Positions 8,301-48,649 of a stretch of DNA of 64,000 nucleotides are shown one piece after another. A model generated the notes under the pieces. That model did not search any database. It had not been told where the DNA came from and saw only the letters and a program-made list of their open reading frames with translations. The DNA is from Wolfiporia cocos (Eukaryota; Basidiomycota; Agaricomycetes; Polyporales; Phaeolaceae). The stretch spans positions 2,852,001-2,916,000 of the forward strand of contig JACCLO010000007.1 of assembly GCA_029448655.1 (NCBI GenBank), given 5' to 3'. Each line of letters opens with the position of its first letter. Within the stretch, counting starts at the first letter, position 1. Both the position numbers and the translations under genes were made by a program.

Positions 8301-8443
8301 CTCGGTCGATTTTGTCACCGACCTGCCAAGAGTCGGAAAGTATGACTCCATGATGGTGATTGTCGACCATGGCCTATCCAAGGCCATCTCTCTCACCCCA
8401 TGCGACAAAACAATTACAAGTGAAGGGGCCGCAGAAATATTCC

Positions 8444-10229
8444 TGTCACGGTTTTCGCCGTTGACTAAGGGTACGCCTTTCTTTTTGCCTTTTCTTTAGG
8501 CCTCCAGCGTACGCCTCGCACCCTAGTCCCCTAGTTCCTCTGTCCTCGTCATACGCTCACCCTAGTGTCACAGATTTATCTGGGGCTTACAGCATTTTTC
8601 CTACGATTATAGCAATTTACCTGGGATTTATACGTCTAACTACAAGTTATCTACGGGTTAACTCCCATTGCCACCACGACAAGCTCTTAACTGGGCTTAT
8701 CACCACATGACCAGCTTACATAACGCTACGGCACCTTCCGGTCCAATAGCATAGTTACAGCTTCGTCATACAGGTCTTGCCCGTCAGAGCAAGACCAGCC
8801 ACGTCATAGATCGTAGATCATAATGATAGGCCGAGCGCGGCACGCTCGCATAATAATGTCCACATGTACAAACAGTGCCTCGCGGCCTTGTACTATTGGG
8901 TCGGCCTTCCCGGCTTCCCACCGCCATAAGATCCTTGATCACAATGGCACCTTAGGCGCGCCACGCCTTCGCATAATAATGGCAACACGGCCAAATAGCA
9001 CTATATTAGCATCAAGGCAATATCGCTATAGGCTCGGCCTTCTCGGCCATCCCACGGACTCGGCGCTCTCCAAGTCCCGGGCTTCTGCCATCACGGCGTT
9101 GCCCAAACACCGGTCCTCGCCTCACGGCTAAGACCGCCATATGTTCCGGTAACCATCCGGTCCGGACATATCACATGCTACGGTGCCTGTTGGCCCAATA
9201 GCATTACGACCTCGGCGTCTCGCCTTGGTCAGCACACGATGACCGGCCAATCGCCATTATACCTCACGGTATCCGGCAACCGGCATCCCTTATACCCGGG
9301 CTGCGCCCGTATTCACATGTCCATCCAACGATGAGACCACACGCTCTCTCTTTTACCATTGGCTCGGCCATTACCGGCGGGTCACGGCCTTTGTAGAGTA
9401 GTCGTACCACTTGGTCGCCCTTATGGCAACCAAGCCCACACTCCTTATCGGGCATGCACTATACAGTAGCACATGACCCGTTATATTTGTGTATATAAGT
9501 AGGGCCTTGACGGCCTATAACCTTAGTTCTATTCTTCTCGGCGTACGCCGTAGAAGAACCTCCTACCTCCTACGTCGTCTGATAACCTCTTCCTCACCTA
9601 AGTCGCCTAGTTCATCGCAGGATACTGGCTTGGTGAGTCCCACAGAGCCATCTGTGTCACCTAGCCCGGTAGTCACGTGACCCATAGATTAGATAGTAGC
9701 ATCCTCCCCAGACATCGTTATCTCAGTATAGGCACCTGACCTTAGCGCTTGTCCTACCGGCGTCAGCCTTACCGCTGACGTCATCCATTATGCACAGCCT
9801 TGTAGCTATGGGGATGACCCTAGATACTTAGGCCTTCAGCCTGGACCCATATGGTCCAGGCCTTTATGTTTTCCTCTATACATGTGACCTGTGCCCTTAC
9901 TGGCGCACAGACCATTACTTTAGGGTAGTACCTTAGATAGTGGTCCGGTCCATGTACATATATGCCTCGTTCTTTGGCCTTAGAGCCTTAGAACGATTAT
10001 TCTCGACTTTGGGGCTTAGTCCCCCGGTTATGCCATCAGTGTCTGCTTGTGCACCTCGACATCGACCTCTGGCCTTAGTTGGCCCCTTCAAGGTCTCTGT
10101 CTATAACCTCTGGCTTTACTCTTAGACCGCTAGTCTGTGCGACAGCCATTCGTGGCCGTTACGTCGCCCCTCTATACGGTCCTCAAGCCATGTTAGTGAC
10201 TTGTAGGCAATGACGGTATTTCTGCGTCA
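8444..10229 (+). mobile_element. Solo LTR in A1 pol, itself interrupted
   Basis: Starts TGTCACGG, ends GCGTCA, flanked by ATTCC (8439-8443 and 10230-10234). It contains a nested solo LTR (8566-9659); without it the unit is 687 bp. There is no coding frame of note; a forward promoter-like TATA (ATATATGCC near 9958) fits an LTR. Excision restores the integrase frame of A1. A TIR transposon is less likely because the ends are TG...CA with a 5-bp duplication, as for every other LTR here. Confidence 0.85.
8566..9659 (+). mobile_element. Nested solo LTR, 1094 bp
   Basis: TGTCACAGATTTATC... to ...GGTGAGTCCCACAG...TGTGTCA, flanked by CCTAG (8561-8565, 9660-9664). TATATAAGTAGG at ~9491 is the likely LTR TATA. 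It carries the end motif GTGAGTCCCACA shared by several LTRs in the window (near 31700, 38970). Confidence 0.85.
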
Positions 10230-11156: not shown

Positions 11157-12221
11157 ATGTCGACGACTCGCCACCAACTCCCTCGTCGCGCCACGACCCC
11201 CCACAGCGACACGGGTCGCCGAGAAGGACGACCGAGAGGTACGCCGCCGAGGAGGTACTCCCCCCAACATCTGCAGATCAGACACGCCCTCCTCTGGTAC
11301 AGGGCCGAGGGACCTTTTGCTGGCCGAGCCGATGGCTGGACGGCCCTCTTCGACATCGCGCAGGACCTCACCTATATCTACAGCTCGTACCAGAATATCA
11401 CCGAGGACCTCGTCCGAATGGAGGGGCAGATCAGAGCGCAGAGAGAGGGACTCGAGCTACTCACCGACAGACTTATCGACCGACTGGCCGCCACCACGAT
11501 GGCCCGACTACGACATGCACTCAACGACTTCGAGGATCGCGAGCACACTACTCCCAATCAACCCAAATATGTACCACGACCCGCCCGCTTTTTCACCACT
11601 GACGAACGACACCGAGTTGCAAGGCCGTTTGATTTTATGGAACGCGATCGAGTATTATTTCCATTGCCTACCGAGACTCAGAGAGCCCAATGAACAGGAG
11701 CTAGAGACTCGACGCCGCGTATTCCTGGTGTGGGAAGCAACAGGAGACGTGAACCACCTGCACGCCCGACGAGCCCTAGGGCTACCCCAGCGCGACAGCG
11801 AAGAGCGAATAGCACGCCGCCTGTTCGATGATCTCCTTCAGTGCAGAGCATTACCCGCGAGGAGTTTGAGCGAGGTGCGAGGGAACACGAACGAGACACC
11901 GCCTCCCTACCCACATGGGCGGCGCGGAACCTTCATCGAGCCGCACACCATTGGAGGTATCAACACAACGAATACCTCCGTGATATCCCTTCCTTACGGG
12001 TACCAGCGAGGCCCTCACCAGAACAGCCGTGTCGACAATGTGGTTCAGCCAACCACTGGGTCCTCGACTGCCCCGACTATATTTGCAGAACTTGTGGGCT
12101 CAATCAACCAGGTCATCAACAGAATGAATGCCGCCAACACTTCGTATGGCGAACTCCTACGACCCCGTCCCTCAGCGGGAACGGCGACATCTACAACGAA
12201 CAGGACGCCGAGGCACTCTGA
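11157..12221 (+). pseudogene. A1 ORF3: double zinc-knuckle protein overlapping pol, one nonsense
   Basis: Frame -1 relative to pol, ATG 11157 (MSTTRHQLPRR) to 12221, matching the intact 353-aa ORF at 20097-21158 in A2. It is broken here by a single TGA at 11691-11693, where A2 has CGA. The N-terminal half contains a coiled-coil-like stretch (NITEDLVRMEGQIRAQREG); the C-terminus holds CRQCGSANHWVLDC (CX2CX4HX4C) and CRTCGLNQPGHQQNEC (CX2CX6HX4C). In two stretches compared with A2 (about 11236-11281 and 11915-11970) 13 of 14 substitutions are synonymous in this frame. It is a nucleocapsid-like protein of unknown role. Confidence 0.8.
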
Positions 12222-16073: not shown

Positions 16074-18056
16074 ATGTCTTCCACCTCCTCCAACAGCTCA
16101 CCCCTCGCTACTCGTCGCACGATGCGCCTTCGTTCGGAAGGTCCGGTAACCCCGGTGGCAGGGCCCTCAGGGACTCAACCCCTGATAACCCTGGAACATC
16201 TGAGCGAGGAAGAGGAAGAGGACGAAGCTGAGGATGTTCCCCCACAAAGGGACTCCCCATCCAACCCCATGGGAACGCGTCCGGGCACACCTATCCCTGG
16301 ATACCCGCCGGCCCGCTACACCCGACCGATCGGGGCCGTCACAACCCTCGAAATAGAGTATTCGGGTCCGGCTCGCCGTACCAACGATGAGGTCGAAAGA
16401 GGGCTCAAGGCTTACCTCCCAGAGGAGGACCAACACAAGGTGGATGGACCCCTGCATGGGGCAATCATTGACGCCGCCGTACAACGAAGTGCGGCAATAA
16501 GCCACGATAAGGTCGACACCCTCGGCCGAATGGTGTATGCCCGCCTGGAGCGAATCCATGGCAGAATCGACTCCCTGGCTGGGCAATCCAGGGCAATCGA
16601 ACAGATGGCCCAAGACGAGCTACACGAAGCGGTCAATTCAGTCCGCAACGAGGTTGTGTCCACTTTGGTGGACCTTGGCAAGGAACTCCGGCAGGAATAC
16701 ACTGCCAAGTTCTCCGAAATGGAGAAAGAGCTCCGGAAGGATTACCGGTCTCGGCTCGACGACCTCGAGGATGCATTCGTCAAGCGCATGGAGAAGGTTG
16801 AGCAAGAACTTCGGAGGAGTCGCAAGAATCCCTCCGTTCCCAACCCTCCCGGGGCCCGCACGCCCCCGGAAGAACCCGCACCGGCCCCCAACACTGCTCG
16901 AACCCGTGCAGCCGAGGCCGCTGCCACCGCACAAGCTGCAGCCGCTGCTGCAGCAGCTGTCACCCCACAGATTCCAGGTCTGCCTCAAAACCTGAAAATT
17001 CCCCCTCCCCCCGAATTCTCTGGGTCATCTGGAAAGGTGACTGCGCAGGAATGGGTGGAGAAGATGGGCCTGTACTTCGGTACGCTCAGGGTCTACGACG
17101 ACCATGACCGTATCACCACGGCCCTCTTCCGCGTCACAGGGGACGCATACAAGTTTTTCTCGCCTCTCATCAAGAAGGCAGGAAACGGTGAACCTCTCGG
17201 CACCTGGGAGGATTTCACCAAATCCGTAATGGTGCAATACGGCAAGATGACGGATAAGGAGATCGCGAAAAAGGAAATTCGCGGTTACTACGGTACCAAG
17301 GGCAAGGAACTCGCAGAATCAAACTATTTCAATTACTGCAAACGATTCCGCACCCTCGGCCGTCTCTCCGAAACCGCCAACGAGACCCTGGTGTGGGAGT
17401 TCACCGAAACACTCCCCGAAAAGGTTAAGGACACCTTAAACGTCCTCGGCAAGACCCCCTTCTTCAAGGCCCCAACCGACATCGAGCCCCTCATCGACTT
17501 TGCACTGGAGATGTATCAGACATCTTATCCAGACAAGATCAAGGGATCGATCTTCGAGAAGGCCGGCAAAAAGGACTCGGCCCCTGCCGAAAAGAAGGAG
17601 ACGTCCTCCGCTTCTGCAAAGAAGTCGGAGAAAAAGAAGGACAAGGGAAAGGCGCCCGCCAAAGCCCCCGCCGACACCGCCAACGCAGTCTGCACCTACT
17701 GCAAGCAGACAGGACACTATTTCAACAAGCGTCCTAAGCTTGCGGCAGACAAGGCCGCGGGAATGTTTGTGCCTGCCGCTCAGCGGGCCGAACAACAAAG
17801 GGCAAAGGATGCAGCCGCCGCGTCTGGAAAGACCACGGCTGCTCCTTCGGGTAGTGGAAAGGGACAGGCTTCTGGCAAGAAGCCGTACTTGGCGCCCCCC
17901 GCGGATGGCAAGACGTATCGTGCCCGAACGATCTGGGAGGAAGTAACGGCTGACTCAGCATCAGCAGGAACATCGGCCCCCGCCACCACCGTCGCCAATG
18001 TCGGGACCATCTCAGTCCCCCTCGCCCCAACCACACGTCTCGAAGACGTTCTGTGA
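16074..18056 (+). CDS. B2 Gag
   Basis: 660 aa, full-length version of the gag truncated in B1. Acidic N-terminus, coiled coil at ~130-255, Ala-rich linker, gag domain at ~305-470, Lys/Ala-rich basic tail. The knuckle-like sequence [14 protein letters not shown] has Arg where the last Cys of CCHC is expected, so this copy or the family lacks a canonical knuckle. The pol ORF begins at 17998, overlapping by 59 nt in the +1 frame. Start ATG 16074 is set by comparison with B1. Confidence 0.88.
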
Positions 18057-19330
18057 AGAACACACCAGCCCCGCAGCGGCTGGGAGTGTACAGCGCCCCG
18101 AAGAAGCGCACCTCTACGAAGAGGCTCCACAGAGACCCCTTATCTTGTGGGAAGATAAGGCGGTCGTACGTCACCCGGTATCCCATCTCGGTATATTCGG
18201 CAACTCGGCAATGGACTTTGCCCGGAGGACTCGGACACTAGCTACATGTGCCCCTCCTGTAAAATACTTTTATCCTGACCCCACCGCGCTCAAGTTTTTC
18301 TCAATGTATAATATTGTACATGGAAATGATTCCCGAGACGACAATAAATCATTCTCCATTGAGGTAGAACTGTGGGTATATGGAAAGAAAGTTAACGCCA
18401 TGGCATTAATCGACACCGGTGCATCAATAAGCGTCATCGATAAGAAACTCGTCCACGAGGAAAAATTAGTCACACAAAAACTACCTTCTCCCCTCGAGAT
18501 TCGCAATGCCGACGGTACCTCTAATACTGCCGGTAATATCAATATGGCAGTAAAAGCTTATATGGTGAACGAGGAACACAAGTTCACCGAATTCTTGTAC
18601 GTAATGGACGTACAAAATGCGGATGTGATCCTCGGATATGACTGGTTCCTGAAACACAACCCGGACTTCAACTGGCCGGAAGGAATCTTCACATATCGGT
18701 GTACAGAAAAATGCAAACATGGCAAACGGGTTTCGATTTCTGAGGAAGAAGACGAAATCGAACCCCGCAACATCTATCAGATCATCAATGACTTTCCAAT
18801 AGATTTTCTCGGCTTAGAGGAGCCTGAGAATCCCTTTGTCGCTTGGGTGAGCACCCTTGACGAAGGAACGGAACTCCTTATCAAAGCCATACAATCAATA
18901 ACGGAGAAGTCCGACGATGAATTCCTGACAGATGCGGATCTCCAGAAATGGAAATCCTTGGTTCCGGAGATATACCAGGAGTTTGGTCCCACGGTATTTT
19001 CTCAACGCGCATCCAAAAGGATGCCCGAGCGGAAACCATACGACCACGCCATCGACTTCCCCGATGATGCGGTGCTACCGCCCCCGAGTAAGGCATACAA
19101 GATGTCTCCTCAGGAGGCGAACTCGCTAGATCAGTGGATTCAGGAAGAGTTACGGAAGGGCTACATCCGACACTCGAAATCCCCTATCGCGAGTCCGGTC
19201 TTCTTCGTCCCTAAAAAAGACGGCGGAGCCCGAATGGTAGTCGATTACCGAAAGGTAAACGACTTGACCATTAAAAACAGGTACCCTCTCCCACGCATAG
19301 ACGAGCTTATCGATAAGCTTAGCCAGGCTT

Positions 19331-20042
19331 TGTTACGGGTCGAATACCCGTTCGTATATTCGTGTCGCGAATATAGATCGTTCTTCTGCACGTAGGCACG
19401 TCGCCGTATGCAAGGCAAATACTCGTTAGATGCCTTCGGGTCCTAAGTGAAATCCTTAGGAGATCGGTTAATATCCAATACGCGTTAGAGGATATAATCT
19501 GTTCAGGTGCGAGTCTAATAGAATATAAGACTCGCCTAAGTCCGAGAAGTCAATGTGCACTTCGAGGACTTAGTGGTTCGGTTGCTCGAGAGGGGAATAC
19601 TGAGCGTAGTTTCCTACGTTTGAGAACGAGTATAAGACCTCTTGTTTGTACAACAAGGTCGAGCTGAGGAGCCTCGACAGTAAGTACATGAGTTTATATA
19701 CTACGTTAGGTTTTAGGGGTCAAGTCCGTCCCTGATGTTACCGCTACTATCTACGCTATAGTTCCAAACGTTTGATAAGTATGTAGTGATATATCTGAGA
19801 CGATAGATAGGAATGATGATGGCGGTTGAACGCCATCTGTCAACTAAGAAACGATGAACATGAAACGAGGGCAGAGTTGGATCTGCCAAGGATGAAACGC
19901 GCCCTCTAAGCTAATACAACTGGGGATGCGCCCAGTACGAGTCACGAGTAGCCAGGGGGGTTGGTTGTGCAACAAGTCCCTGTATCGTATTTACCCAGTG
20001 GTGAGTTCCGTCAGCGTTCGAAAAATCAAAATAACTGTAACA
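19331..20042 (-). repeat. 3' LTR of A2
   Basis: 712 bp; on the minus strand TGTTACAGTTATTTTG... to ...GTAACA. Preceded on the minus strand by a purine-rich tract ending in AGAGAGGGGCTGA. Confidence 0.95.
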
Positions 20043-20053
20043 TCAGCCCCTCT

Positions 20054-23000
20054 CTAGCCATTCGTCGGCCTCGACGAATCCCCTAAGCTCCCCTCGTCAG
20101 AGTGCCTCGGCGTCCTGTTCGTTGTAGATGTCGCCGTTCCCGCTGAGGGACGGGGTCGTAGGAGTTCGCCATACGAAGTGTTGGCGGCATTCATTCTGTC
20201 GATGACCTGGTTGATTGAGCCCACAAGTTCGGCAAATATAGTCGGGGCAGTCGAGGATCCAGTGACTTGCGGAGCCACATTGTCGACAGGGTTGTTCAGG
20301 CGAGGGCCTCGCTGGTACCCGTAGGGAAGGGATATCCCTGAGGTATTCGTTGTGTCGATACCTCCAGTGGTGCGCGGCGCGGTGAAGGTTTCGTGCCGCC
20401 CATGCGGGTAAGGAGGCGGTGTCTCGTTCGTGCTCCCACGCACCTCGCTCAAACTCCTCGCGGGTAATGCTCTGCACTGATGGAGATCGTCGAATAGGCG
20501 GCGTGCTATTCGCTCTTCGCTGTCGCTCTGGGGTAGCCCTAGGGCTCGTCGGGCGTGCAGGTGGTTCACGTCTCCCGTTGCCTCCCATACCAGGAATACG
20601 TGGCGTCGGGTCTCTAGCTCCTGTTCGGCGGGCTCTCTGAGTCTCGGTAGACAGTGGAAATAATACTCTATCGCCCTCCATAAAATCAAACGGCCTTGCA
20701 ACTCGGCGTCGTTCGTTGGTGGTGAAAAAGCGGGCGGGTCGTGGTACGTATTCGGGTCGATTGGGAGTAGTGTGCTCGCGATCCTCGAAGTCGTTGAGCG
20801 CATGTCGTAGTCGGGCCGTCGTGGTGGCGGCCAATCGGTCGATAAGTCTGTCGGTGAGTAGCTCAAGTCCCTCTCTCTGCGCTCGGATCTGCCCCTCCAT
20901 TCTGACGAGGTCCTCGGTGATGTTCTGGTACGAGCTGTAGATATGGGTGAGATCCTGCGCGATGTCGAAGAGGGCCGTCCAGCCATCGGCTCGGCCAGCA
21001 AAAGGTCCCTCGGCCCTGTACCAGAGGAGGGCGTGTCTAATCTGTAGATGCTGGGGGGAGTACCTTCTTGGTGGCGTACCTCGCGGTCGGCCTTCTCGAT
21101 GATCTGCACCGCCGGGGGTCGCGGTACGGCGGGGAAGCTGGTGGCGAGTCGTCGACATACTATTACTGTCTTATTTTCGAGTGTCGGGGTTGTCCTGACT
21201 CTCGTCCTGTGGTAGTCTTTTATCAGTTCCTTGGAGTGCTCCAAGTTCGCCTCGTCTTCCCATGAGTTGTCGGCCGTGGCATAGCCTTTCCATTTGACGA
21301 AGTATTGATGCTTCTTTCCTTTCCATCTATCAGCCAAGATGGCTTCGACCTCGTATTCTTCCTGTCCCTTGATGATATCAGGTGGCGGCCGTAAGTAATT
21401 GGGTCCGTGCGCCCTTGTCTCGTTGAATGGTTTTAGTAAGGCGGCGTGGAATACCGGATGAACTTTCCAGCTCGTTGGTAACTGCAGCCGGTATGTCGTG
21501 GGTCCCATCTTTTCTGTGATAGTGAAGGGTCCTTCTCTTTTTGGTGCCAGCTTGTTAGATTCGTAGGGGATTGTTAGGTTCTTTGCGTCGAGCCAGACCT
21601 TATCCCCTTTCTCAAGCTTCGGCAGTTCTCTGAGGAACCTCCCTGCTATTTTTTTCTGAGCTAATTCATGCGCGATGAATGCCATCTTTCGCGCCTCTTT
21701 GATCTTTTTGATCCTGTCGACAGCGGCCGGGACGTTCCCTACTCTGTCATAGTCTGGGAACCCTCTCGGGACGTATCCTAGGATTATTTCAAGTGGCGCT
21801 GGCCGGTTTTCGGTCCGTCTGGTGTTGTGCGCAAATTCGACGTCAGGCAGTCGTTGTACCCACTGGAAAGGGTCGTTCATGCAATAGATGCGAAGGTATA
21901 CTTCGATCTGTTGATTCATTCTTTCTGTTTGTCCATCGGTCTGTGGATGGTACGCCGTACTCATCGCTGATTCTGTCCCCTGCAGCTTGCATAATTCCTT
22001 GAAAAGCTTTGATGCAAACTGCGGCCCTCTGTCTGAAATGATCTTTCGGGGGATGCCATATAGCGAGTAGATTTTTCGGTGAAATATCTCTGCCGCCCCT
22101 TCGCTAGTGATCGTTTTGTCGCATGGGGTGAGAGAGATGGCCTTGGATAGGCCATGGTCGACAATCACCATCATGGAGTCATACTTTCCGACTCTTGGCA
22201 GGTCGGTGACAAAATCGACTGAGCACTGTGAGAAGGGAAGGGCGTCTTCCCGTGTCGGTATTGGTTGCAAAGGGGGTTTCAGCGGATTCCTATCAGGTTT
22301 CATCTGTTGACAGATTGCACAGCCCCGGACGTATTCCGCTATCATTGTTCTCATGTCAGGCCACCAGAAGTGGGTCGTGACCTGTACTGTTGTACCCCAG
22401 ATCCCAGGGTGTCCGGCCGGGATCGTGTCGTGGTATTTTGAGATGATGTCCCGTCGAAGGCCCTCGTCCCTTGGCACGTACATCCTTCCTCTGTAGAGCA
22501 GTATCCCATCCATTTGTTGCCATTCATCTGCGGTGGTTCTCGCGGGGAATTCGCCTGTGCCCCCTAGAGCACGGATCGCCTGTTCCGCAGATTCATCTCG
22601 ATCGTTAGCATTCTTGATTCGATCAATGATCGGGATCTGGATTGCATGGACGACGAGTTCATCTGGAATCATGGTGATTCCCTCGTTGTCCTCGTTGCTT
22701 TCGTCCAGGTGGTACAACCTGGAAAGTGTGTCGGCCATGACTAGTTTCCTTCCGGGGACGTGCTGCAATTTCAGGTCGAATTGTGAGAGGAATAGATGCC
22801 ATCTCGCTTGTCGCCGATTTAGGCGCTGTGCGCTTCTCCAGTACGTCAGGTTCTGATGATCACTTCGGATCAAGATCCGATGCGGTGCTCCTTCCAATAG
22901 GTGCCGCCATTCTTCTAATGCTCGGACTATTCCGAGTAGTTCGCGATCGTAGATTTCGTAGTTCCGTTCTGTTGGTGTCAGGGATTGTGAGAGATATCCC

Positions 23001-25177
23001 ACCGGCCGTTCGCTCCCTGTTTCATCTATTTGTTTCAGCACTGCTCCTGTGGCGAACTGAGATGCGTCTGTTTCGAGGATGAACGGTTTTTCTTTGTCCG
23101 GTGTTCCTAGCGCGGGCGCCGTCGTGAATGCTTTCTTCATGAATTCGAACGCTTTCTGTTCTTTCTCCGTCCATTGGAACCCTGTCCCTGTGACTGTTTT
23201 TGTGAGGTCAACCAAGGGCCGGGCGTGCGTAGAATAGTGATCAATAAATTTCCGATAGAAGTTCGCAAATCCTAGGAAGGATCTGACTTCTTTGAGATTT
23301 CGGGGAGTCGGCCATTCCTTAATCCCATTGAGTTTCGCTGGGTCCATCTGGATATTTCCTGGGGTGATGACTAGTCCCAGAAATTCGACTCTGTCGACAC
23401 CGAAGGCGCATTTCTCGGGTTTCACAAAGAGATGGTTATCCATCAATCTCTGCAGGATCCGCCGCTCCCGTTCCTTGTGTATTTTCTCGTTTTCTGAGAA
23501 AATAAGGATGTCGTCCATATAAACGAGCACCCATCCTTCGAGGATTTCTTCTTTCAGGATTTCGTTCATCATTGCCTGAAAGGTCCCGGGTGCGTTGCAC
23601 AATCCGAAAAACATAACCGTGGGCTCGTACAACCCTCGGTTTGTTTTGAAGGCCGCTTTCCATTCGTCTCCCTTTTTGATTCGCACGTTGTTGTATCCCG
23701 CTCTAAGGTCCATTTTTGTGAAGATCTTTGCTCCTTTTAGCTTTTCCAGGAGCTCTGAGATCAAGGGTAAGGGATAGACGTTCTTTATCGTCCCTTCGTT
23801 CAGATATCGATAATCTTGACAGGGTCGTAGGCCGCTGTCTTTCTTTGGGACGAAAAAGAATGGTGACGCCATCGGGGATTTTGAAGGGACTATGAATCCC
23901 TTGGCCAAGTTTTCTTTTAGGAATTCGTCTAGCGCTTGTTGCTCTTTAGGCGAGAGTGCATAGACTTTGCAGTCTCTTGGCACGAAATCGGGTTTTAATT
24001 CAATTGCGTGGTCCCATGGTCTCGACGGGGGGAACGCTGTTGCGGACTCCTTGCTGAACACCTTTGCGAAGTTCAGTAGGTGTTTTGGGACCATCTCCTC
24101 AATCGTTCGTTCTGGTTCGGGGGTTTTTTGTGCAAATTCCTGGGATTTCGTTAGCGCTTTCCTGACAGCGTTGATAATTTGTATCTTTGTCCGGAACTTC
24201 TTTCGCGTCTCCCCTTTCTTTCCTATGATTCGAGGGTTATCTTTTGCGAAGCGTCGGATCGCTTCGTACTCCTCGGGAGTGTAGAGCCGCTGTGCTGTTT
24301 CTTCGGGCTGGTCCGTGGATCCAAACCCTTTCTCTCCTCGTTCTGTTTCATCTAGGTCTTCGACCTCTATAATGTCGGGGGTGAGGTGCCGTTCGAAAAT
24401 TATCTGGGCTATTCGCATGCCCGGGATAATTCGATGCGCTTTGTCTGAGTAGTTGAAGACGATGGCTCCGACATCTCCTCGGTAGTCCGAGTCTATGATT
24501 CCGGCTTGTACTACCAATCCGTGTCTGAGGGTGTTGCCTGATCGTCCGGCCAGCCTTCCATACGATCCCTTCGGGATCTTCATTTTTACTCCTGTGGAGA
24601 CGAGTTTCCACCCTCCGGCGGGAATCTCGGTTTCTTCTGCGGCGTAAAGGTCATACCCCGCAGCTTCTTGGGTCCCCCTTGTTGGAATTTTTCCTTCTGG
24701 GGCGACTACCATCTCCACTGTATCCATTCGGATTGTGGCTTCCTGTTTCTTTTCTTCTGCCCCTAGTATTGATCGTACATTGACTGTTTGGTCCTTCCAG
24801 TCGATTGTGGGGTTTTCGTCTTTTAGCCATCCATACCCTAGAATCATGTTTTCTGTTCCGATTGATCCTACCAAGAATCGAACTTTTCGCGTCTTCTTGG
24901 TCTTTGGATATCGTAGTAGTATGGTGGCTTCTCGGTCTATTCGCCCATCTTTGTTTTCGGTTCCGTCGACATTTTTGACGATGATCGGGTTCTTCAAGGG
25001 TTGCGTGGGTACCTTGTATTTTTCTACCACTCTGCTGTGGATCAGGTTCGACATTGCTCCTGAGTCGATTAGTGCGTTGCACTTCACGGGTTTTGCCAGC
25101 GTCATGATTACCGGGATGAAGAGGGATCGATTCTTCTCGAACGAGGTAATTACATGCGCTGCTTTCTCGGAGGGCAA
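20054..25177 (-). CDS. A2 Pol: PR-dUTPase-RT-RNaseH-IN-chromodomain
   Basis: Uninterrupted pol frame of ~1707 codons with the same domain order as A1: PR (ALIDSGAMSN), dUTPase (AAGYDLYAAEE ... RGEKGFGSTD), RT (YMDD), RNase H (ETDASQFATG), integrase (HPGIWG...CAICQQM; SDRGPQFAS; YHPQTDGQTER), GPF motif and chromodomain (YEVEAILADRWKGKKHQYFVKWKGY). The ATG used in A1 is ACG here, so initiation at that codon is not conserved and a -1 frameshift or other recoding from gag (stop at 25195-25197) is more likely. The ~350 codons after the chromodomain overlap ORF3 and are probably not the selected frame. Confidence 0.93.
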   Translation of the reverse strand: MPSEKAAHVITSFEKNRSLFIPVIMTLAKPVKCNALIDSGAMSNLIHSRVVEKYKVPTQPLKNPIIVKNVDGTENKDGRIDREATILLRYPKTKKTRKVRFLVGSIGTENMILGYGWLKDENPTIDWKDQTVNVRSILGAEEKKQEATIRMDTVEMVVAPEGKIPTRGTQEAAGYDLYAAEETEIPAGGWKLVSTGVKMKIPKGSYGRLAGRSGNTLRHGLVVQAGIIDSDYRGDVGAIVFNYSDKAHRIIPGMRIAQIIFERHLTPDIIEVEDLDETERGEKGFGSTDQPEETAQRLYTPEEYEAIRRFAKDNPRIIGKKGETRKKFRTKIQIINAVRKALTKSQEFAQKTPEPERTIEEMVPKHLLNFAKVFSKESATAFPPSRPWDHAIELKPDFVPRDCKVYALSPKEQQALDEFLKENLAKGFIVPSKSPMASPFFFVPKKDSGLRPCQDYRYLNEGTIKNVYPLPLISELLEKLKGAKIFTKMDLRAGYNNVRIKKGDEWKAAFKTNRGLYEPTVMFFGLCNAPGTFQAMMNEILKEEILEGWVLVYMDDILIFSENEKIHKERERRILQRLMDNHLFVKPEKCAFGVDRVEFLGLVITPGNIQMDPAKLNGIKEWPTPRNLKEVRSFLGFANFYRKFIDHYSTHARPLVDLTKTVTGTGFQWTEKEQKAFEFMKKAFTTAPALGTPDKEKPFILETDASQFATGAVLKQIDETGSERPVGYLSQSLTPTERNYEIYDRELLGIVRALEEWRHLLEGAPHRILIRSDHQNLTYWRSAQRLNRRQARWHLFLSQFDLKLQHVPGRKLVMADTLSRLYHLDESNEDNEGITMIPDELVVHAIQIPIIDRIKNANDRDESAEQAIRALGGTGEFPARTTADEWQQMDGILLYRGRMYVPRDEGLRRDIISKYHDTIPAGHPGIWGTTVQVTTHFWWPDMRTMIAEYVRGCAICQQMKPDRNPLKPPLQPIPTREDALPFSQCSVDFVTDLPRVGKYDSMMVIVDHGLSKAISLTPCDKTITSEGAAEIFHRKIYSLYGIPRKIISDRGPQFASKLFKELCKLQGTESAMSTAYHPQTDGQTERMNQQIEVYLRIYCMNDPFQWVQRLPDVEFAHNTRRTENRPAPLEIILGYVPRGFPDYDRVGNVPAAVDRIKKIKEARKMAFIAHELAQKKIAGRFLRELPKLEKGDKVWLDAKNLTIPYESNKLAPKREGPFTITEKMGPTTYRLQLPTSWKVHPVFHAALLKPFNETRAHGPNYLRPPPDIIKGQEEYEVEAILADRWKGKKHQYFVKWKGYATADNSWEDEANLEHSKELIKDYHRTRVRTTPTLENKTVIVCRRLATSFPAVPRPPAVQIIEKADREVRHQEGTPPSIYRLDTPSSGTGPRDLLLAEPMAGRPSSTSRRISPISTARTRTSPRTSSEWRGRSERRERDLSYSPTDLSTDWPPPRRPDYDMRSTTSRIASTLLPIDPNTYHDPPAFSPPTNDAELQGRLILWRAIEYYFHCLPRLREPAEQELETRRHVFLVWEATGDVNHLHARRALGLPQSDSEERIARRLFDDLHQCRALPARSLSEVRGSTNETPPPYPHGRHETFTAPRTTGGIDTTNTSGISLPYGYQRGPRLNNPVDNVAPQVTGSSTAPTIFAELVGSINQVIDRMNAANTSYGELLRPRPSAGTATSTTNRTPRHSDEGSLGDSSRPTNG
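20097..21158 (-). CDS. A2 ORF3: intact double zinc-knuckle protein overlapping pol
   Basis: 353 aa, -1 frame relative to pol, starting ~50 codons after the chromodomain and ending 55 nt before the LTR. N-terminal basic stretch; helical region with LVRMEGQIRAQREGLELL (~residues 75-110); Pro/Arg-rich middle; C-terminal CRQCGSASHWILDC (CX2CX4HX4C) and CRTCGLNQPGHRQNEC (CX2CX6HX4C). Codon-level comparison with A1 shows substitutions overwhelmingly silent in this frame and replacing in pol. The knuckles suggest RNA or single-stranded DNA binding; a second nucleocapsid or an element-specific regulator are both possible. Expression route (spliced or subgenomic RNA, reinitiation) is unknown. Confidence 0.82.
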   Translation of the reverse strand: MSTTRHQLPRRTATPGGADHREGRPRGTPPRRYSPQHLQIRHALLWYRAEGPFAGRADGWTALFDIAQDLTHIYSSYQNITEDLVRMEGQIRAQREGLELLTDRLIDRLAATTTARLRHALNDFEDREHTTPNRPEYVPRPARFFTTNERRRVARPFDFMEGDRVLFPLSTETQRARRTGARDPTPRIPGMGGNGRREPPARPTSPRATPERQRRANSTPPIRRSPSVQSITREEFERGAWEHERDTASLPAWAARNLHRAAHHWRYRHNEYLRDIPSLRVPARPSPEQPCRQCGSASHWILDCPDYICRTCGLNQPGHRQNECRQHFVWRTPTTPSLSGNGDIYNEQDAEAL

Positions 25178-25194
25178 GACCGTGGGCTTCCCTC

Positions 25195-27015
25195 CTAGGC
25201 AAAATCCTGTTCTTCTACGAGCTGTGTTAGGAGCTCAGGGTTCTTGGCTTTCAGGGTCCTAATCGCTGCGACCGCTCTGTTTGCGGTGATGTATTCAGTC
25301 TCCTCCTCAGAGACTTCTTCAATGCGAGCTTCTTGCTCGGCTTCTTCTTCTTCGGTCTTTCGAGTAGTCCGCCTAGGGCGGGCTGGCTTCCTCGGCCTCT
25401 TTGGGCAGTCTCGCGACATATGCCCTGGCTGATGACAGGTGAAACATTTTCCCTTCTTGATGTGATCGTCCCTTTCTTGGGTGGTCATTCGATCTACATC
25501 CATCGCATTTGGATCTTTTGGTGCGGTTGTCTGCGGAGCACTAGTGCGTCCGTTATTCTGGTTCGAGGCTTGCCAAGCCTTTTTCCTGACAAACGGTTTA
25601 TCCCGTTTCAAGAATATCTTGTACGTATTTTCGTAGTACGAGGCGGCGGACTGCCATTCATCAATGGTCGCTGGTAGCGGTCGAACGCCGATGATGTATC
25701 GGGTCGTATGTTCGGGTAACCCTTTCTCGAATAGGGTTATGAGCAACGCGTTTCCGTCCGCGCTGTATCGATCGTACTGGGCCTTCCCGGCCAAGTTGTT
25801 GAACTCGGTGATATAATCATCGATGTCTTTCCTGTCCTGGGTTACGTCCAGGATTTTCTTCCGCGCCTTCTGTACTTCTTCGATGGCTCCGAAGGCTTTC
25901 TGGAAGTCTGCATCAAATTGTGCAAGACTAGGCGGGAAGAATCGTTTCGTCTGGGGGTTCGTATACACCCGGTGATAATTCTGTTTCCATTGGCCCGTTT
26001 TCCCCTTGTTTGAAATATAAGAGAGGATAAAGATCACTCTCTGAACGTCGTTCTGGAACGACGTTTCGTACATCGTAAACCAGGAATTGCACTGGTTTAT
26101 GAAGTTCTGCATGTCGGATCGTTCCCCGTCGAATACATCTGGGGGATTGATCTTTATCATTGGGGGTCGGTAGTACGGGTTCGGCGCCGGAGGTTGGGGC
26201 TGCGGCGCATTTGGTGGTGGGGGCCCGCCTGGGGGTCCTCCTCCTCCCGGGTATCCTCCACCCGGGTTTCCTGGGTTTCCTCCCGGGTTTCCTCCTCCGG
26301 GGTTTGCGGGGGTTCCTCCTCCGAGTCCTCCAGGAGGGGGGGCGTTCCCTCCTCCGAGTCCGAAGTTTCCTCCCAGTCCTCCTCCGCTTGTACCTGCGGA
26401 GGTTCGTCCAAATAGGCCTGAAGGCCATGTTCCTGGGTTTGTCGCTCCCATTCCTCCGCTTGGGCTAGTCCAAGACGGATCTCCTCCGCTACCCATTCCG
26501 GGTGCGTTCTGTGGGGGGTTTCCAAAGAGGTTTGTTCCTCCAGCCATAGGCCCAGTCCCACTCTGCGCAAAAGCAGATATAAATCCTGGAGGGTCCTGTC
26601 CTCCGGTCTGGCTGTTATCTGTTCCTGTAGAGTTTCCAGGATTTCTCCCATCATTTCCGATGCGCTCAATTCCTGCCATTCCCGTGGCGCCCGAAGGCTG
26701 ATTCGTATTTCCATCGGCATCGAAGGTTCTGTTGATGGTTTCGTTTTCGGTCAACGTCGCGGTTGACATCGGAGGGATTTCTCCGAATCGTTCGAACGCT
26801 TCACGCGTTATTTCCCAAGCGGTCGTTCTTGCGGAGGGGTATACTTCTACCCACTTCGATGCCCTATCTTCTCTTGGAATGACAACAATTCCTCCGCGGT
26901 TACGGAAGGCTCCAATGGTGTCAGTCCACTCGTATCGGTTGAGTCTGTAGACTCCCTGAATGTCCTCGGGCAAGAGTTCAATCAGTCGTGCTGGGAATTC
27001 TGGTCCAAATATCAT
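25195..27015 (-). CDS. A2 Gag polyprotein
   Basis: 606 aa, same architecture as the A1 Gag: N-terminal unique domain, Gly/Pro-rich linker (21 nt shorter than in A1, loss of one repeat unit), gag domain, CCHC knuckle CFTCHQPGHMSRDC, Glu-rich tail. The start ATG is 46 nt inside the LTR boundary, as in A1. Confidence 0.93.
   Translation of the reverse strand: MIFGPEFPARLIELLPEDIQGVYRLNRYEWTDTIGAFRNRGGIVVIPREDRASKWVEVYPSARTTAWEITREAFERFGEIPPMSTATLTENETINRTFDADGNTNQPSGATGMAGIERIGNDGRNPGNSTGTDNSQTGGQDPPGFISAFAQSGTGPMAGGTNLFGNPPQNAPGMGSGGDPSWTSPSGGMGATNPGTWPSGLFGRTSAGTSGGGLGGNFGLGGGNAPPPGGLGGGTPANPGGGNPGGNPGNPGGGYPGGGGPPGGPPPPNAPQPQPPAPNPYYRPPMIKINPPDVFDGERSDMQNFINQCNSWFTMYETSFQNDVQRVIFILSYISNKGKTGQWKQNYHRVYTNPQTKRFFPPSLAQFDADFQKAFGAIEEVQKARKKILDVTQDRKDIDDYITEFNNLAGKAQYDRYSADGNALLITLFEKGLPEHTTRYIIGVRPLPATIDEWQSAASYYENTYKIFLKRDKPFVRKKAWQASNQNNGRTSAPQTTAPKDPNAMDVDRMTTQERDDHIKKGKCFTCHQPGHMSRDCPKRPRKPARPRRTTRKTEEEEAEQEARIEEVSEEETEYITANRAVAAIRTLKAKNPELLTQLVEEQDFA
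26157..26720 (-). CDS. A2 ORF overlapping the gag linker (unknown)
   Basis: 187 aa, equivalent of 3783-4367 in A1. The stretch EWQELSASEMM to LEEQTSLETPH (about 55 residues) is identical in the two copies although the same DNA has seven substitutions, all replacing Gag residues. Leu/Glu-rich, no recognised domain. See findings for the counts and the contrary signal in its second half. Confidence 0.42.
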   Translation of the reverse strand: MPMEIRISLRAPREWQELSASEMMGEILETLQEQITARPEDRTLQDLYLLLRRVGLGLWLEEQTSLETPHRTHPEWVAEEIRLGLAQAEEWERQTQEHGLQAYLDEPPQVQAEEDWEETSDSEEGTPPLLEDSEEEPPQTPEEETREETQETRVEDTREEEDPQAGPHHQMRRSPNLRRRTRTTDPQ

Positions 27016-27049
27016 GTGCCCTTACACCGTGGTAGGTGAGGGTGTGATA

Positions 27050-27060
27050 AGCTCGACCTT
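27050..27060 (-). promoter_or_regulatory. A2 self-complementary primer-binding site
   Basis: Minus-strand AAGGTCGAGCT one base inside the 5' LTR, complementary to AGCTCGACCTT at 27386-27396, which lies ~35 nt downstream of a TATATAAA on the minus strand. Identical to A1. Confidence 0.75.
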
Positions 27061-27061
27061 C

Positions 27062-27773
27062 TGTTACGGGTCGAATACCCGTTCGTATATTCGTGTCGCG
27101 AATATAGATCGTTCTTCTGCACATAGGCACGTCGCCGTATGCAAGGCAAATACTCGTTAGATGCCTTCGGGTCCTAAGTGAAATCCTTAGGAGATCGGTT
27201 AATATCCAATACGCGTTAGAGGATATAATCTGTTCAGGTGCGAGTCTAATAGAATATAAGACTCGCCTAAGTCCGAGAAGTCAATGTGCACTTCGAGGAC
27301 TTAGTGGTTCGGTTGCTCGAGAGGGGAATACTGAGCGTAGTTTCCTACGTTTGAGAACGAGTATAAGACCTCTTGTTTGTACAACAAGGTCGAGCTGAGG
27401 AGCCTCGACAGTAAGTACATGAGTTTATATACTACGTTAGGTTTTAGGGGTCAAGTCCGTCCCTGATGTTACCGCTACTATCTACGCTATAGTTCCAAAC
27501 GTTTGATAAGTATGTAGTGATATATCTGAGACAATAGATAGGAATGATGATGGCGGTTGAACGCCATCTGTCAACTAAGAAACGATGAACATGAAACGAG
27601 GGCAGAGTTGGATCTGCCAAGGATGAAACGCGCCCTCTAAGCTAATACAACTGGGGATGCGCCCAGTACGAGTCACGAGTAGCCAGGGGGGTTGGTTGTG
27701 CAACAAGTCCCTGTATCGTATTTACCCAGTGGTGAGTTCCGTCAGCGTTCGAAAAATCAAAATAACTGTAACA
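27062..27773 (-). repeat. 5' LTR of A2
   Basis: 712 bp, near-identical to 19331-20042; the differences I see are the C/T-type changes at ~19394/27124 and ~19802/27534. Holds the promoter and predicted transcript start (27396 on the minus strand). Confidence 0.95.
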
Positions 27774-30700
27774 GGCTTCGATATTTACGAAGCTCGACTT
27801 GCGTTGGGGTTACAACAATGTAAGAATCAAGGAGGGAGATGAATGGAAGACCGCATTCATTACGCCTAACGGCCTTTACGAAGCTGTAGTCATGTACTTC
27901 GGTTTTTGTAATGCACCCAGCACGTTCCAACACATGATGAACGATATTCTAGGTGACCTTATCAGAGAAGGAAAGGTCATTGTCTACCTAGACGACATCC
28001 TTGTGTTCGGAAACGACCTGTTGGAACACCGTCGTATCGTCAAGCAAGTATTACAAATCTTGCAAGACAACGACTTGTTCGCGAAGCCTGAAAAGTGCTT
28101 CTTCGAACAAAGCAGTATTGAATACCTGGGAATGATCATTTCCAAAGGAAAAGTCGAAATGGACCCTAAGAAGGTAGCCGGTGTAATGGACTGGCCTACA
28201 CCTGCCAAGGTGAAGGACGTCCAGGCCTTTGTTGGCTTCGCCAACTACTACCGTCGGTTCATTAAGGACTTCTCCAAAGTGGTTAAGCCGTTAACCGAAC
28301 TGTCCAAGAAAAACACGCAGTGGAACTGGGGACCCGAACAAGCGGAAGCCTTCCAAACTCTCAAGGAAGCTTTCACATCGGCTCCAATACTCCGGATCCC
28401 AGATCAGGAGTCCCCGTTCCGCGTGGAAGCGGATTCTTCTGATTACGCAACTGGTGCGGTGCTATCGCAATACTCTTCGGAGGATAAGCTCTGGCACCCG
28501 GTAGCCTTTTACTCGAAATCTCTATCAGCACCCGAAAGGAACTATGAGATTTACGATAAGGAGTTGCTCGCAATCATCCGCACTCTAGAGGAATCGAGAC
28601 ATCACCTCGAAGGACATCCACACAAATTCGAAGTATGGTCGGATCATCTCAATCTGACATATTTCAAATCGGCACAACGGCTAACCCGGAGACAGGCACG
28701 TTGGAGTCTTTACCTGACAAGGTTCAACTTCACCATGTGTCACAAACCCGGTAAAACAATGCTCACGGCTGATCCTCTGTCACGGAGGCCAGACCATGAA
28801 GAGGGGGTGGAACTCGATAATCGCGATCAAATTTTGCTGAAACCGGAATACTTCACGGTTAGGGCGCTAGAAGCGTCACAGCAGGAGATACAATCAGGCG
28901 ACGAGGACCTTCTCCGACAAATCCGACAAGCCCTCATGGACGATCAAATTACCAAAGATTACCAGGAACTACTGAAAAGTGGTCCCAAGGAATTCGGTAA
29001 AGATCTCCAGGAATGGAACATGGAGGCCGGATTACTCCTCAGACGAGGAAAAGTGTACGTTCCAAAAGAGCCTAAGGAATTACGAACGAAGATTCTGGAG
29101 TTACATCATGACCATGTAACAGCCGGTCACTTCGGACGATGGAAGACCTATGAACTTCTATCGCGTAATTACTGGTGGCCTGGAATGACCACGATGGTAA
29201 AGCAATACGTGGAAGGTTGTGACACATGCCAGCGCATGAAGAACCACAACCAGACCCCGTACGGACCCCTGCAACCGCTCCCAGTACCGGAAGCACCTTG
29301 GGACACCGTCACAATTGACCTTATCGTCCACCTACCACCCAGCGGCGAATTGAAACAATTCAATGCTATTATGGTAATAGTGGACCGATTGACCAAGCGC
29401 GCACACTTCATTCCCACGTCAGACAATATCTCGGCAAAGGAATTAGCAAACCTCCTGTACCTTCGGATTTATCCGAATCACGGACTTCCGAAACAAATCA
29501 TTTCGGATAGAGGACCGCAATTCTCTTCTGAGTTATTCAAGGGATGGTGCGAACAATTGGGAATTCAGAGGTCGATGACGACAGCCTACCACCCGCAAGC
29601 GGACGGCCAAACGGAGAGAATTAACCAAATTCTAGAACAATACCTACGATGCTACATCGACGTTATCCAAAAAGATAACTGGGTGTTCTATCTCCCCACG
29701 GCAGAGTTTGCGTACAACAACGCGGCTAGTGAGACGACCAAGAATAGTCCATTCTTCGTCGAACTAGGAAGGCATCCCAATGCAGGACCTACGGATTTGA
29801 AGCCGACGCAATACTCGGACTTAAATCAATTTGCTTACGAAAGATGGTCAGCACAAGAACAAGCTAAGGCAGCAATGAAATTGGCTGCTGAACGCTGGTC
29901 TTGGTACTACGATCAACATAAGCGCTCGGTACCGTTTAAAGTCGGCGACAAAGTTCTCGTTGACGCCCGTAGCTGGCAAGACTCCGAAAGAAGTCTTAGT
30001 CCACGCTATTTGGGACCATTTAAGATAATTGAACAATTATCTCCGGTCACTTTTAGGGTACACATGGACGAGCAATACAGGGCCTATCACCCAGTATTTC
30101 ACGCTTCCAAGTTGGTTATGTACAAGGACCCTGTGCATCAGAAGAAACCAGAGCCTCAACCAGAAATGGTCGATGGCGAAGAATTATGGGAAGTTGAGAA
30201 GATCTTAGATCATCGTCTCCGCGCAGGAAGAGTTGAATACAGAATCCGATGGAAAGGATTCGGTATCAATGACAACTCCTGGGTACGCGAAGCCGATCTT
30301 GACTCGGCATATGACATTCTGCAGGAATACAAGGCTTCACATGCCATTCCCATGCAGGATGTTCCCCTCAGGCGATCAGCTAGAAGGAAAGAAGCAGTTC
30401 ACGTATTCGATCCTGACAGCGACGACTGGGAAGCCAACGAATGCACGTGGCCAGACGACTGGCCGCAGTATCGCGAGGAATTTGCAAAAGATCCTAAACA
30501 GCGCATGGTTAGACACCCCGACGGGGGATGGATGTCAGCTGACATTAACCAAAACGCGGACCTGAAAATCGTAGTCGGTGAAGGCGGCCGAATGCCGGAA
30601 AAAGGAACCAAGGACTCGGTTGGATTTGACCTGTACACAGCAACAGGCGATGTTCTGCCAGCTCACGGGCAGACAGAATACAATACCAAACTGAAGATCC

Positions 30701-31023
30701 AGGTACTTTTCGGCACTTACGGACGTATCGCACCCCGCTCTAGTCTTGCCCAAAAAGGCATAGACGTAATGGGTGGCGTCATCGACCACGACTACCAAGG
30801 CGAAGTAATCATCATTCTTCGAAACCATTTGGACATATCTATCGATATCCGAGCCGGAGATAAGATTGCCCAGCTTATCTGCGAAGTTGCTAAGGACCCG
30901 CACATTACGCTACACGGAAAATCTTACTTTGAAAAGATTAAATCCGAGCGTGGTACTGGTGGATTCGGCTCCACAGGAAAGTAATCGTTCCATTAGGGAC
31001 AATGAAACCTGAAGAGGGGGTAA

Positions 31024-48387: not shown

Positions 48388-48434
48388 TGTATATAAACCT
48401 ACTCGCTGAGGTCTTACTACCTCAGTTCGATTAT
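48388..48434 (+). promoter_or_regulatory. TRIM1 LTR promoter and self-priming 5' end
   Basis: TATATAAA (~48390) followed ~34 nt later by AGTTCGATTAT (48424-48434), the exact reverse complement of ATAATCGAACT at 48639-48649. Confidence 0.7.
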
Positions 48435-48638
48435 CATCGGCATTGGGGCGAGTCCCTCAGTTCTACTCTGAACCTCTGCGTGCTAGACTGGTGGTCGACA
48501 CTACTTCTTAGTTACTGTCTACCTTGGGTCATTAACCAACACCCATCCAGTCGCCCTTCAAGACGTTAGGTCTTAGCCTTAGACGTTAGGTTATAGGCAG
48601 GGCGTTAGTATCGTACGTCACAGTAAATCTGTGTCATA

Positions 48639-48649
48639 ATAATCGAACT
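48639..48649 (+). promoter_or_regulatory. TRIM1 self-complementary primer-binding site
   Basis: ATAATCGAACT, two bases inside the left LTR, complements 48424-48434. No tRNA-like alternative adjacent to the LTR is seen. Confidence 0.7.

What the first reader, a model, noticed from the sequence alone, without database searches (positions are those of the whole stretch)
20097..21158. Overlapping ORF3 with two CCHC knuckles, selected in preference to the pol frame
A 353-aa frame (-1 to pol) overlaps the last ~1 kb of pol in A2 and, bar one CGA to TGA stop, in A1 (11157-12221). I aligned two stretches by eye (A1 11236-11281 and 11915-11970 with their A2 equivalents): 14 substitutions, of which 13 are synonymous in ORF3 and 1 is replacing, while in the pol frame 1 is synonymous and 13 replacing. 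The encoded protein has CX2CX4HX4C and CX2CX6HX4C knuckles and a helical region. So the open pol extension after the chromodomain is probably the passenger frame and ORF3 a real, apparently uncatalogued third gene of this chromovirus family.
Basis: seen in the sequence. Interest (0 to 1): 0.9.

Follow-up and report, generated by a model that had tools for sequence, protein, structure and literature searches.

The report
Hidden third gene overlapping retrotransposon pol
A mobile element in what is likely a wood-decay fungus carries a third open reading frame inside the last kilobase of its polymerase gene, and the pattern of mutations shows selection on that frame and, more weakly, on the polymerase frame, so the same stretch of DNA likely makes two different proteins.

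Summary
ORF3 (20097-21158, minus strand, 353 aa, -1 to pol) lies in an 8.4-kb chromovirus (A2; LTRs differ at 2 of 712 sites). Of 40 copies chosen by neighbouring chromodomain DNA, 33 have a full open ORF3, 1 is open with an in-frame deletion and 6 are broken. On a tree of 65 copies the ORF3 frame is under strong purifying selection (omega 0.16; 0.10 on internal branches), against 0.88 in the 240 nt upstream. The ATG and all eight zinc ligands are conserved in 65 of 65. Pol-frame proteins annotated in Wolfiporia cocos MD-104 imply that the knuckles were kept across species. The best reading is a dual-coding overlap in which a pol segment sits in ORF3's linker. ORF3 is probably a basic (pI 10.3), nucleocapsid-like accessory protein translated from its own ATG. 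Expression and function are untested; no splice or frameshift signal was established. The searches named here found no published description. A1's ORF3 has two stops, not one.

The parts
20097..21158 (-). ORF3, 353 aa, own ATG, -1 to pol; dual-coding overlap
   Evidence: omega 0.16; ATG 65/65 and TGA 64/65 copies
20187..20234 (-). ORF3 zinc knuckle 2, CX2CX6HX4C (aa 309-324)
   Evidence: all four ligands 65/65; Cys/His-compatible in 6 of 6 W. cocos proteins
20247..20288 (-). ORF3 zinc knuckle 1, CX2CX4HX4C (aa 291-304)
   Evidence: all four ligands 65/65; Cys/His-compatible in 6 of 6 W. cocos proteins
20754..21056 (-). ORF3 N-terminal conserved, predicted helical region (aa 35-135)
   Evidence: conserved in P0005/P0006; helix prediction of low confidence
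20559..20618 (-). stretch where the pol frame is the more constrained one (pol aa about 1520-1540)
   Evidence: ORF3-silent/pol-changing 3 observed of 19.1 expected; ORF3-changing/pol-silent 32 of 20.3
20054..25177 (-). pol of A2 (1707 aa as listed): PR, dUTPase, RT, RNase H, integrase, chromodomain, then 383 aa of C-terminal extension that overlaps ORF3
21206..21355 (-). pol chromodomain (aa 1275-1324), ending about 48 nt before ORF3
   Evidence: Pfam PF00385
24314..24694 (-). dUTPase domain between protease and RT
   Evidence: Pfam PF00692
25195..27015 (-). gag of A2 (606 aa), with its own CCHC knuckle
19331..20042 (-). 3' LTR of A2 (712 bp); target-site duplication at 19326-19330
27062..27773 (-). 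5' LTR of A2 (712 bp), 2 mismatches to the 3' LTR; target-site duplication at 27774-27778
11157..12221 (+). ORF3 frame of copy A1, ATG and TGA kept, two internal stops (aa 179, 225)

Best explanation
ORF3 is a third gene of this chromovirus family that shares about 1 kb of DNA with the 3' end of pol in a different frame, with both frames under purifying selection, and it likely encodes a basic, RNA-binding, nucleocapsid-like accessory protein translated from its own start codon. Shown: the overlap, the two-frame constraint, the onset of clear ORF3 constraint at the ATG, and conservation of the zinc ligands within this genome; across species the ligands are inferred from W. cocos pol-frame proteins. 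The two frames divide the DNA unevenly: ORF3 dominates its N-terminal region (aa 1-120) and most of its C-half, and pol dominates around aa 1520-1540, which falls in ORF3's arginine- and proline-rich linker. Inferred: the pol frame must stay open through ORF3's first half so that Pol can carry this C-terminal segment. Predicted, untested: ORF3 is made from a spliced or internally started short RNA, the N-terminal region oligomerises, and the knuckles bind element RNA to help packaging or reverse transcription or to regulate it.
For: Selection: 917 substitution events in the overlap on a tree of 65 copies give omega ORF3 0.16 (95% 0.11-0.23) and pol 0.37 (0.26-0.53). The 240 nt upstream give ORF3 frame 0.88 and pol 0.21, and the LTR gives 0.73 and 0.78. 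On internal branches alone ORF3 is 0.10 and pol 0.34. Stops: 12 ORF3-stop and 7 pol-stop events, all on terminal branches. Geometry control: within changes that alter ORF3, pol-altering changes are depleted to 0.49, against 1.60 in a pol-only region read in the same relation. In the pol-only control, first- and second-position replacements are equally rare (0.33, 0.37), whereas ORF3 first positions (pol third) are 0.80 and ORF3 second positions (pol first) 0.36. Start: ATG 65/65 although the stop five codons upstream is present in only 21/65. Ligands: 8 of 8 invariant in 65/65. Across species: in the knuckle half 28/30, 31/34, 26/30, 27/29, 24/34 and 24/34 pol replacements (P0005 to P0010) leave the ORF3 residue codable, against 13.2-15.0 expected for random single-base replacements. 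All 48 ligand columns (8 in 6 proteins) stay Cys/His-compatible, with Val/Ala swaps at three Cys columns. P0010 is an annotated W. cocos protein reading the whole pol extension, and P0005/P0006 read ORF3's N-half and then pol's C-half. Composition: pI 10.3.
Against: No transcript or peptide was examined. No promoter, splice site or slippery site for ORF3 was established: pol-synonymous change is only mildly low at 21176-21220 (0.55-0.75) and not low in the last 15 nt before the ATG (1.47). The ORF3 frame is not perfectly neutral upstream: 0.57 in the nearest 120 nt (LR 6.4) and 2.05 in the next 120. Pol constraint is patchy (0.73 at 21039-21158, 0.89 at 20439-20558, 1.00 at 20079-20198) and weak in the pol-only tail after ORF3 (0.69, LR 1.8). 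The method leans below 1 in the LTR. A second control with the opposite geometry gave 0.76, nearer to 0.49. Both structure predictions failed (mean pLDDT 42.9 and 36.3), so the RNA-binding role rests on the knuckles and charge, and the Pfam knuckle matches are below their cut-offs. In the N-half W. cocos gives no sign that pol is protected (14 of 38 against 14.2; 10 of 35 against 11.8). In the middle part (ORF3 178-265) there is no clear excess of ORF3-keeping replacements over the single-base expectation in any of the six proteins (12/28, 11/30, 10/32, 13/31, 14/32, 17/35 against 13.7-16.8). The same-residue null is weaker in the knuckle half (P 0.0005-0.07). The six W. cocos proteins are related to each other. 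Recombination among copies could inflate event counts.
Confidence: 0.72

Rival explanations
1. ORF3 is the only gene in the overlap and the pol extension is a passenger kept open by chance or by ORF3's codon make-up.
For: Changes silent in ORF3 show no bias against radical pol changes outside 20400-20678. ORF3 replacements in W. cocos do not spare pol in the N-half. Pol omega is near 1 in some 120-nt windows.
Against: Pol omega 0.37 against 0.78 in LTR; MH ratio 0.49 against 1.60 in the same-geometry control, 0.76 in the opposite one; pol dominates at 20559-20618; the pol frame is open in 58 of 70 copies and its stops are only terminal; the pol extension is conserved in W. cocos.
Confidence: 0.12
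2. The working product is a joined protein: ORF3's N-half continued in the pol frame (as in gene models P0005 and P0006) by a short intron or a frameshift, with the knuckle form as a second isoform.
For: Two W. cocos gene models join ORF3 N-half to pol C-half. Five copies here (L033-L037) match P0005 across both halves in one frame.
Against: P0005 and P0006 use different junctions, which fits ab initio modelling. Knuckle conservation across species suggests that the unspliced ORF3 C-half is also kept. Region lengths in the five fused copies (1061, 1062, 1062, 1052 and 1061 nt) show small indels, not a removed intron of about 50 nt.
Confidence: 0.12
3. ORF3 is made only as a Pol-ORF3 fusion by -1 ribosomal frameshifting near the end of pol.
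For: ORF3 is -1 to pol, as pol is to gag (frame arithmetic).
Against: No in-frame X_XXY_YYZ heptamer at 21230-20981 in 65 copies, except 7 copies at 21005, 51 codons inside ORF3. ATG 65/65 and little ORF3-frame constraint upstream of it.
Confidence: 0.06
4. The overlap is conserved as RNA or DNA (a packaging signal, polypurine-tract neighbourhood or antisense transcript) and the open frames are by-products.
For: The region lies next to the 3' LTR.
Against: Changes follow codon structure in the ORF3 frame: third-position silent changes 523 against 278.9 expected, second-position replacements 109 against 300.2. Length changes in open copies are multiples of three.
Confidence: 0.02

Closest known systems
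Chromoviruses of Polyporales with a dUTPase between protease and RT (PosPlaTy3-5 of Postia placenta, PMC2864245, section 5 read)
   Same: Ty3/gypsy LTR element, chromodomain at the pol end, dUTPase between PR and RT.
   Different: The section read describes one or two ORFs for most elements. [quoted passage not shown] no overlap is described there. I did not compare sequences or RT trees.
Additional ORFs of plant LTR retrotransposons (aORF-3S, PMC7264820, passages seen)
   Same: Sense-strand extra gene at the 3' side of pol, kept in many copies.
   Different: Those are described as lying between pol and the 3' LTR and env-like; ORF3 lies inside pol in another frame and carries tandem zinc knuckles.
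ORF3s of bdelloid rotifer LTR retrotransposons (PMC5408684, passages seen)
   Same: Family-specific third ORF, in some lineages of elements that also carry dUTPase; said there to be typically expressed from spliced messages.
   Different: Env-like, GDSL, DEDDy and other types; the word 'overlap' does not occur in the main text held.
Lentiviral vif overlapping the pol 3' end (recalled, not from a call)
   Same: Small basic accessory gene whose start lies inside the pol 3' end, in another frame, behind the integrase.
   Different: vif overlaps pol only partly; here all of ORF3 lies within pol. No Vif family came up in the Pfam scan.

Membership tests
Chromovirus (Ty3/gypsy) | pol order PR-RT-RNase H-integrase with chromodomain, LTRs and target-site duplication | tested here: met
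   Pfam domains in order (the protease match is below its cut-off, 21.7 against 28.2 bits); 712-bp LTRs and 5-bp duplication
Chromovirus (Ty3/gypsy) | RT/integrase phylogeny places it in a named chromoviral clade | not tested
   no RT tree was built
Overlapping (dual-coding) gene pair | purifying selection in both frames of the shared DNA | tested here: met
   omega 0.16 and 0.37 against LTR 0.73 and 0.78; same-geometry control; pol constraint is patchy
Overlapping (dual-coding) gene pair | both proteins are made | not testable with these tools
   no RNA or protein data
CCHC zinc-knuckle (nucleocapsid-like) protein | CX2CX4HX4C ligand pattern, conserved | tested here: met
   knuckle 1 exact, ligands 65/65; knuckle 2 has X6 in place of X4
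CCHC zinc-knuckle (nucleocapsid-like) protein | Pfam zf-CCHC above the gathering score | tested here: not met
   PF00098 14.6 bits against 20.8; PF13696 17 against 27
CCHC zinc-knuckle (nucleocapsid-like) protein | binds single-stranded RNA | not testable with these tools
   needs a binding assay
Env-like third ORF | signal peptide and transmembrane segment | not tested
   no predictor was run; the translation is arginine- and proline-rich
Lentiviral Vif | sequence relation to Vif | tested here: not met
   no such family in the Pfam scan at E up to 0.1

The most novel reading that the evidence does not exclude
A fungal retrotransposon family has evolved an accessory gene wholly nested in pol, in the manner of a lentivirus: an RNA-binding ORF3 and a new Pol C-terminal domain created by overprinting interlock on the same kilobase, each occupying the other's linker, and the element depends on both.
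Probability: 0.35. Interest if true: 0.82.

Novelty: new variant of a known kind. Interest (0 to 1): 0.64.

Why it matters
Long dual-coding overlaps are well known in viruses (recalled), but the searches listed no paper that by title or abstract start describes one in an LTR retrotransposon. This family supplies 115 scored matches at 93-100% identity in one genome (a lower bound) and relatives in a second species, so constraint can be measured frame by frame. It would show that retrotransposons, not only retroviruses, gain accessory genes by overprinting. It also warns that annotation by longest ORF, and gene models such as W. cocos P0005 and P0006, can hide or scramble such genes.

Tried and rejected
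Rejected: chance open frame (third frame full of stops, codon-structured substitutions). Rejected: a separate sub-lineage with ORF3 N-half fused in frame to pol's C-half; L033-L037, which first suggested it, are 89.7-93.7% identical family copies with indels. Rejected: conserved -1 slippery heptamer. Tried without result: structure of ORF3 and of the pol extension (too poor for a fold search, none was run); solved structures (one weak match at the first knuckle, a Gag polyprotein, E 0.024); ORF3 relatives in viral contigs (0 confirmed of 6 pattern matches); long pol proteins with the extension (none at E up to 0.001 among 7984 scored); ORF3 relation to gag (only a short knuckle match); a literature search on Vif (0 papers). 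One search used a faulty index and its table is void; one search replaces it. Rows dropped before counting: 5 of 70 copies (L033-L037) (ORF3 part; ORF3 part; second part); L049 (partial) was left out, and identical sequences were counted once (81 reduced to 70). The pol-only control uses 70 copies. One search was for 20 further low-ranking copies, which are therefore missing.

Full report
Setting. The window lies in a 64,431,438-base genome of 76 contigs. The size agrees with the 64.44-Mb Wolfiporia hoelen assembly of PMC9503964 (abstract start in the search listing; passages), and all six named relatives found are from Wolfiporia cocos MD-104. The host name is therefore an inference. Element A2 (minus strand, LTRs 27062-27773 and 19331-20042, 712 bp with 2 mismatches, 5-bp target-site duplication) carries gag (25195-27015) and pol (20054-25177; protease, dUTPase, RT, RNase H, integrase, chromodomain). 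Pol continues 383 codons past the chromodomain and ends just before the 3' LTR. ORF3 (20097-21158) lies wholly inside this extension, -1 to pol.

Observation. The ORF, its frame and both knuckles are as described. Copy A1 has two stops in ORF3 rather than one. Over the whole overlap A1 and A2 differ at 81 sites: 40 silent in ORF3 only, 18 silent in pol only, 13 replacing in both, 10 silent in both.

How many copies keep ORF3. Of 115 scored protein matches, 100 have no stop inside, but these are the best-scoring ones of 633 candidates. A sample not chosen by ORF3 is the 40 best DNA matches (96-100% identical) to 541 nt just upstream. Of these, 33 have a full open ORF3, 1 is open with a 48-nt in-frame deletion (L086), and 6 are broken: two with one stop (L078, L045), two frameshifted (L036, L084) and two interrupted (L083, L085). 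Among 70 distinct copies aligned, 56 have ORF3 uninterrupted, 58 pol and 49 both; the third frame has 2-14 stops per copy and at least 9 wherever both frames are open.

Selection in each frame. On a tree of 65 copies (5 frameshifted ones dropped) I counted substitution events by parsimony and compared them with expectation from base- and CpG-specific rates. Model estimates over the overlap are omega 0.16 for ORF3 and 0.37 for pol (917 events; block bootstrap 0.11-0.23 and 0.26-0.53). In the 240 nt upstream they are 0.88 and 0.21; split in two, the ORF3 frame is 2.05 in the farther 120 nt and 0.57 (LR 6.4) in the nearer 120 nt, so neutrality upstream is not perfect. In the LTR, used as a non-coding control, they are 0.73 and 0.78 (0.44-1.37 and 0.57-0.94), so the method itself leans below 1. 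On internal branches the overlap gives 0.10 and 0.34. Without the model, 577 of 917 events are silent in ORF3 against 291 expected, and 282 are silent in pol against 310 expected. Pol constraint is thus visible only once ORF3 is taken into account.

Is the pol constraint real? Three checks. First, codon positions: in 901 nt of pol-only sequence (70 copies), first- and second-position replacements are equally rare (0.33 and 0.37 of expectation), but in the overlap ORF3 first positions (pol third) stand at 0.80 and ORF3 second positions (pol first) at 0.36. Second, within ORF3-replacing changes sorted by severity, pol-replacing ones are depleted to 0.49 (0.56, 0.38 and 0.52 in the three segments), against 1.60 for a non-coding frame in the same geometry and 0.76 in the opposite geometry. 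Third, all 7 pol-stop events, like all 12 ORF3-stop events, fall on terminal branches. On the other side, among ORF3-silent changes radical pol replacements are avoided only in 20400-20678 (13 observed of 37.5 expected; elsewhere 100 of 63.3 and 62 of 33.9). Pol omega in 120-nt windows of the overlap ranges from 0.11 to 1.00, and is 0.69 (LR 1.8) in the short pol-only tail after ORF3. So pol constraint is strong in one segment and mild or absent elsewhere. Of 18 60-nt steps from 21158 to 20079, ORF3 is dominant in 13, 4 are even, and pol is dominant in 1 (20559-20618).

Start of the gene. ATG is present in 65 of 65 copies and TGA in 64 of 65. The in-frame stop five codons upstream is present in only 21 of 65, so in most copies the frame is open further up, yet it shows little constraint there. 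This fits translation from this ATG. No conserved slippery heptamer is present. Pol-synonymous sites at 21176-21220 are slightly slow (0.55-0.75) but not at 21161-21175 (1.47), too little to name a signal.

Across species. ORF3 as query finds two W. cocos proteins among 4,953 candidates; a profile of these two finds six in all. P0005 and P0006 begin in the ORF3 frame (P0005: 116 of 154 residues identical to ORF3) and continue in the pol frame (P0005: 120 of 180). P0007-P0010 read the pol frame, P0010 from the chromodomain to the end. No W. cocos DNA was at hand, but a pol-frame protein limits what ORF3 can be. Each ORF3 cysteine needs Val or Ala, and each histidine Thr, Ile or Met, at one pol position. 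All 48 ligand columns (8 in 6 proteins) comply, including Val/Ala swaps that are silent in a cysteine codon; at other Val/Ala columns of this part Val/Ala is kept in 59 of 101. In the knuckle half, 28/30, 31/34, 26/30, 27/29, 24/34 and 24/34 pol replacements leave the ORF3 residue codable; 13.2-15.0 are expected for random single-base replacements. Against a stricter null (same replaced residue elsewhere) P is 0.0005-0.07. In the middle part (ORF3 178-265) the counts are 12/28, 11/30, 10/32, 13/31, 14/32 and 17/35 against 13.7-16.8 expected, no clear excess, which fits a free ORF3 linker; the stricter null is exceeded there at P below 0.05 only by P0009 (0.04) and P0010 (0.009). In ORF3 136-177 the four proteins that cover it show no signal. 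P0010 gives 29 of 48 against 22.8 in ORF3 aa 24-135 (P 0.0145). In the N-half ORF3 replacements do not spare pol (14 of 38 against 14.2; 10 of 35 against 11.8). The six proteins are related and are not independent tests.

How it most likely works. ORF3 is basic (pI 10.3, about +15 at pH 7), with a conserved N-terminal region predicted helical at low confidence, an arginine- and proline-rich linker and two tandem knuckles. The best guess is an RNA-binding accessory protein of nucleocapsid type, beyond the knuckle that Gag already has. Its expression would need a spliced or internally started RNA. The pol frame inside ORF3 is, by inference, kept open so that Pol can carry a C-terminal segment conserved between the two species, which sits where ORF3 tolerates change. 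Probabilities: ORF3 a real protein gene 0.93; both frames under selection 0.8; own-ATG expression 0.7; nucleocapsid-like role 0.4.

What is known. PMC2864245 (section 5 read) reports dUTPase between PR and RT in a Postia element and, in a figure legend, an undescribed 'additional ORF'; I did not open its supplement (no look-ups allowed). PMC7264820 and PMC5408684 (passages) describe extra ORFs at the 3' side of pol in plants and rotifers. The Botrytis brtn gene is antisense, by the title of a reference in PMC8365987 (passages). PMC3248453 (passages) mentions no such ORF in the passages seen. Searches listed no paper that by title or abstract start describes a dual-coding overlap in a retrotransposon of this kind; whole texts were not read.

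Noticed in passing
window 16074-19395 and 27799-30984 (+), interrupted by 19331-27773: A2 appears to be inserted, in opposite orientation, in the RT region of another chromovirus (B) whose dUTPase sits at the pol C-terminus after the chromodomain, not between PR and RT. Two placements of the same domain lie in one nested locus.
   Followed up: partly
window 46032-47861 (-): A third dUTPase-bearing ORF (609 aa, dUTPase at its C-terminus), possibly a fragment of a B-like element.
   Followed up: no
window 50656-51575 and 48148-49725: Perfect direct repeats of 254 nt (spacing 666) and at least 300 nt (spacing 1278) look like LTRs of very short non-autonomous elements.
   Followed up: no
window 38084-38992: Inverted repeat with 172-nt arms, 97% complementary, 565 nt apart; possibly a MITE or folded-back insertion.
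   Followed up: no
window 8442-10229: A1's pol is split by about 1.8 kb between its two halves matching A2; probably an insertion.
   Followed up: no
window 25195-25234 (-): gag and pol of A2 are also in a -1 relation with an open-frame overlap of about 40 nt; the means of pol expression was not worked out.
   Followed up: no
window 21641-21700 (-): A dip in pol-synonymous change (37 observed, 71 expected) in pol upstream of the chromodomain, unexplained.
   Followed up: no
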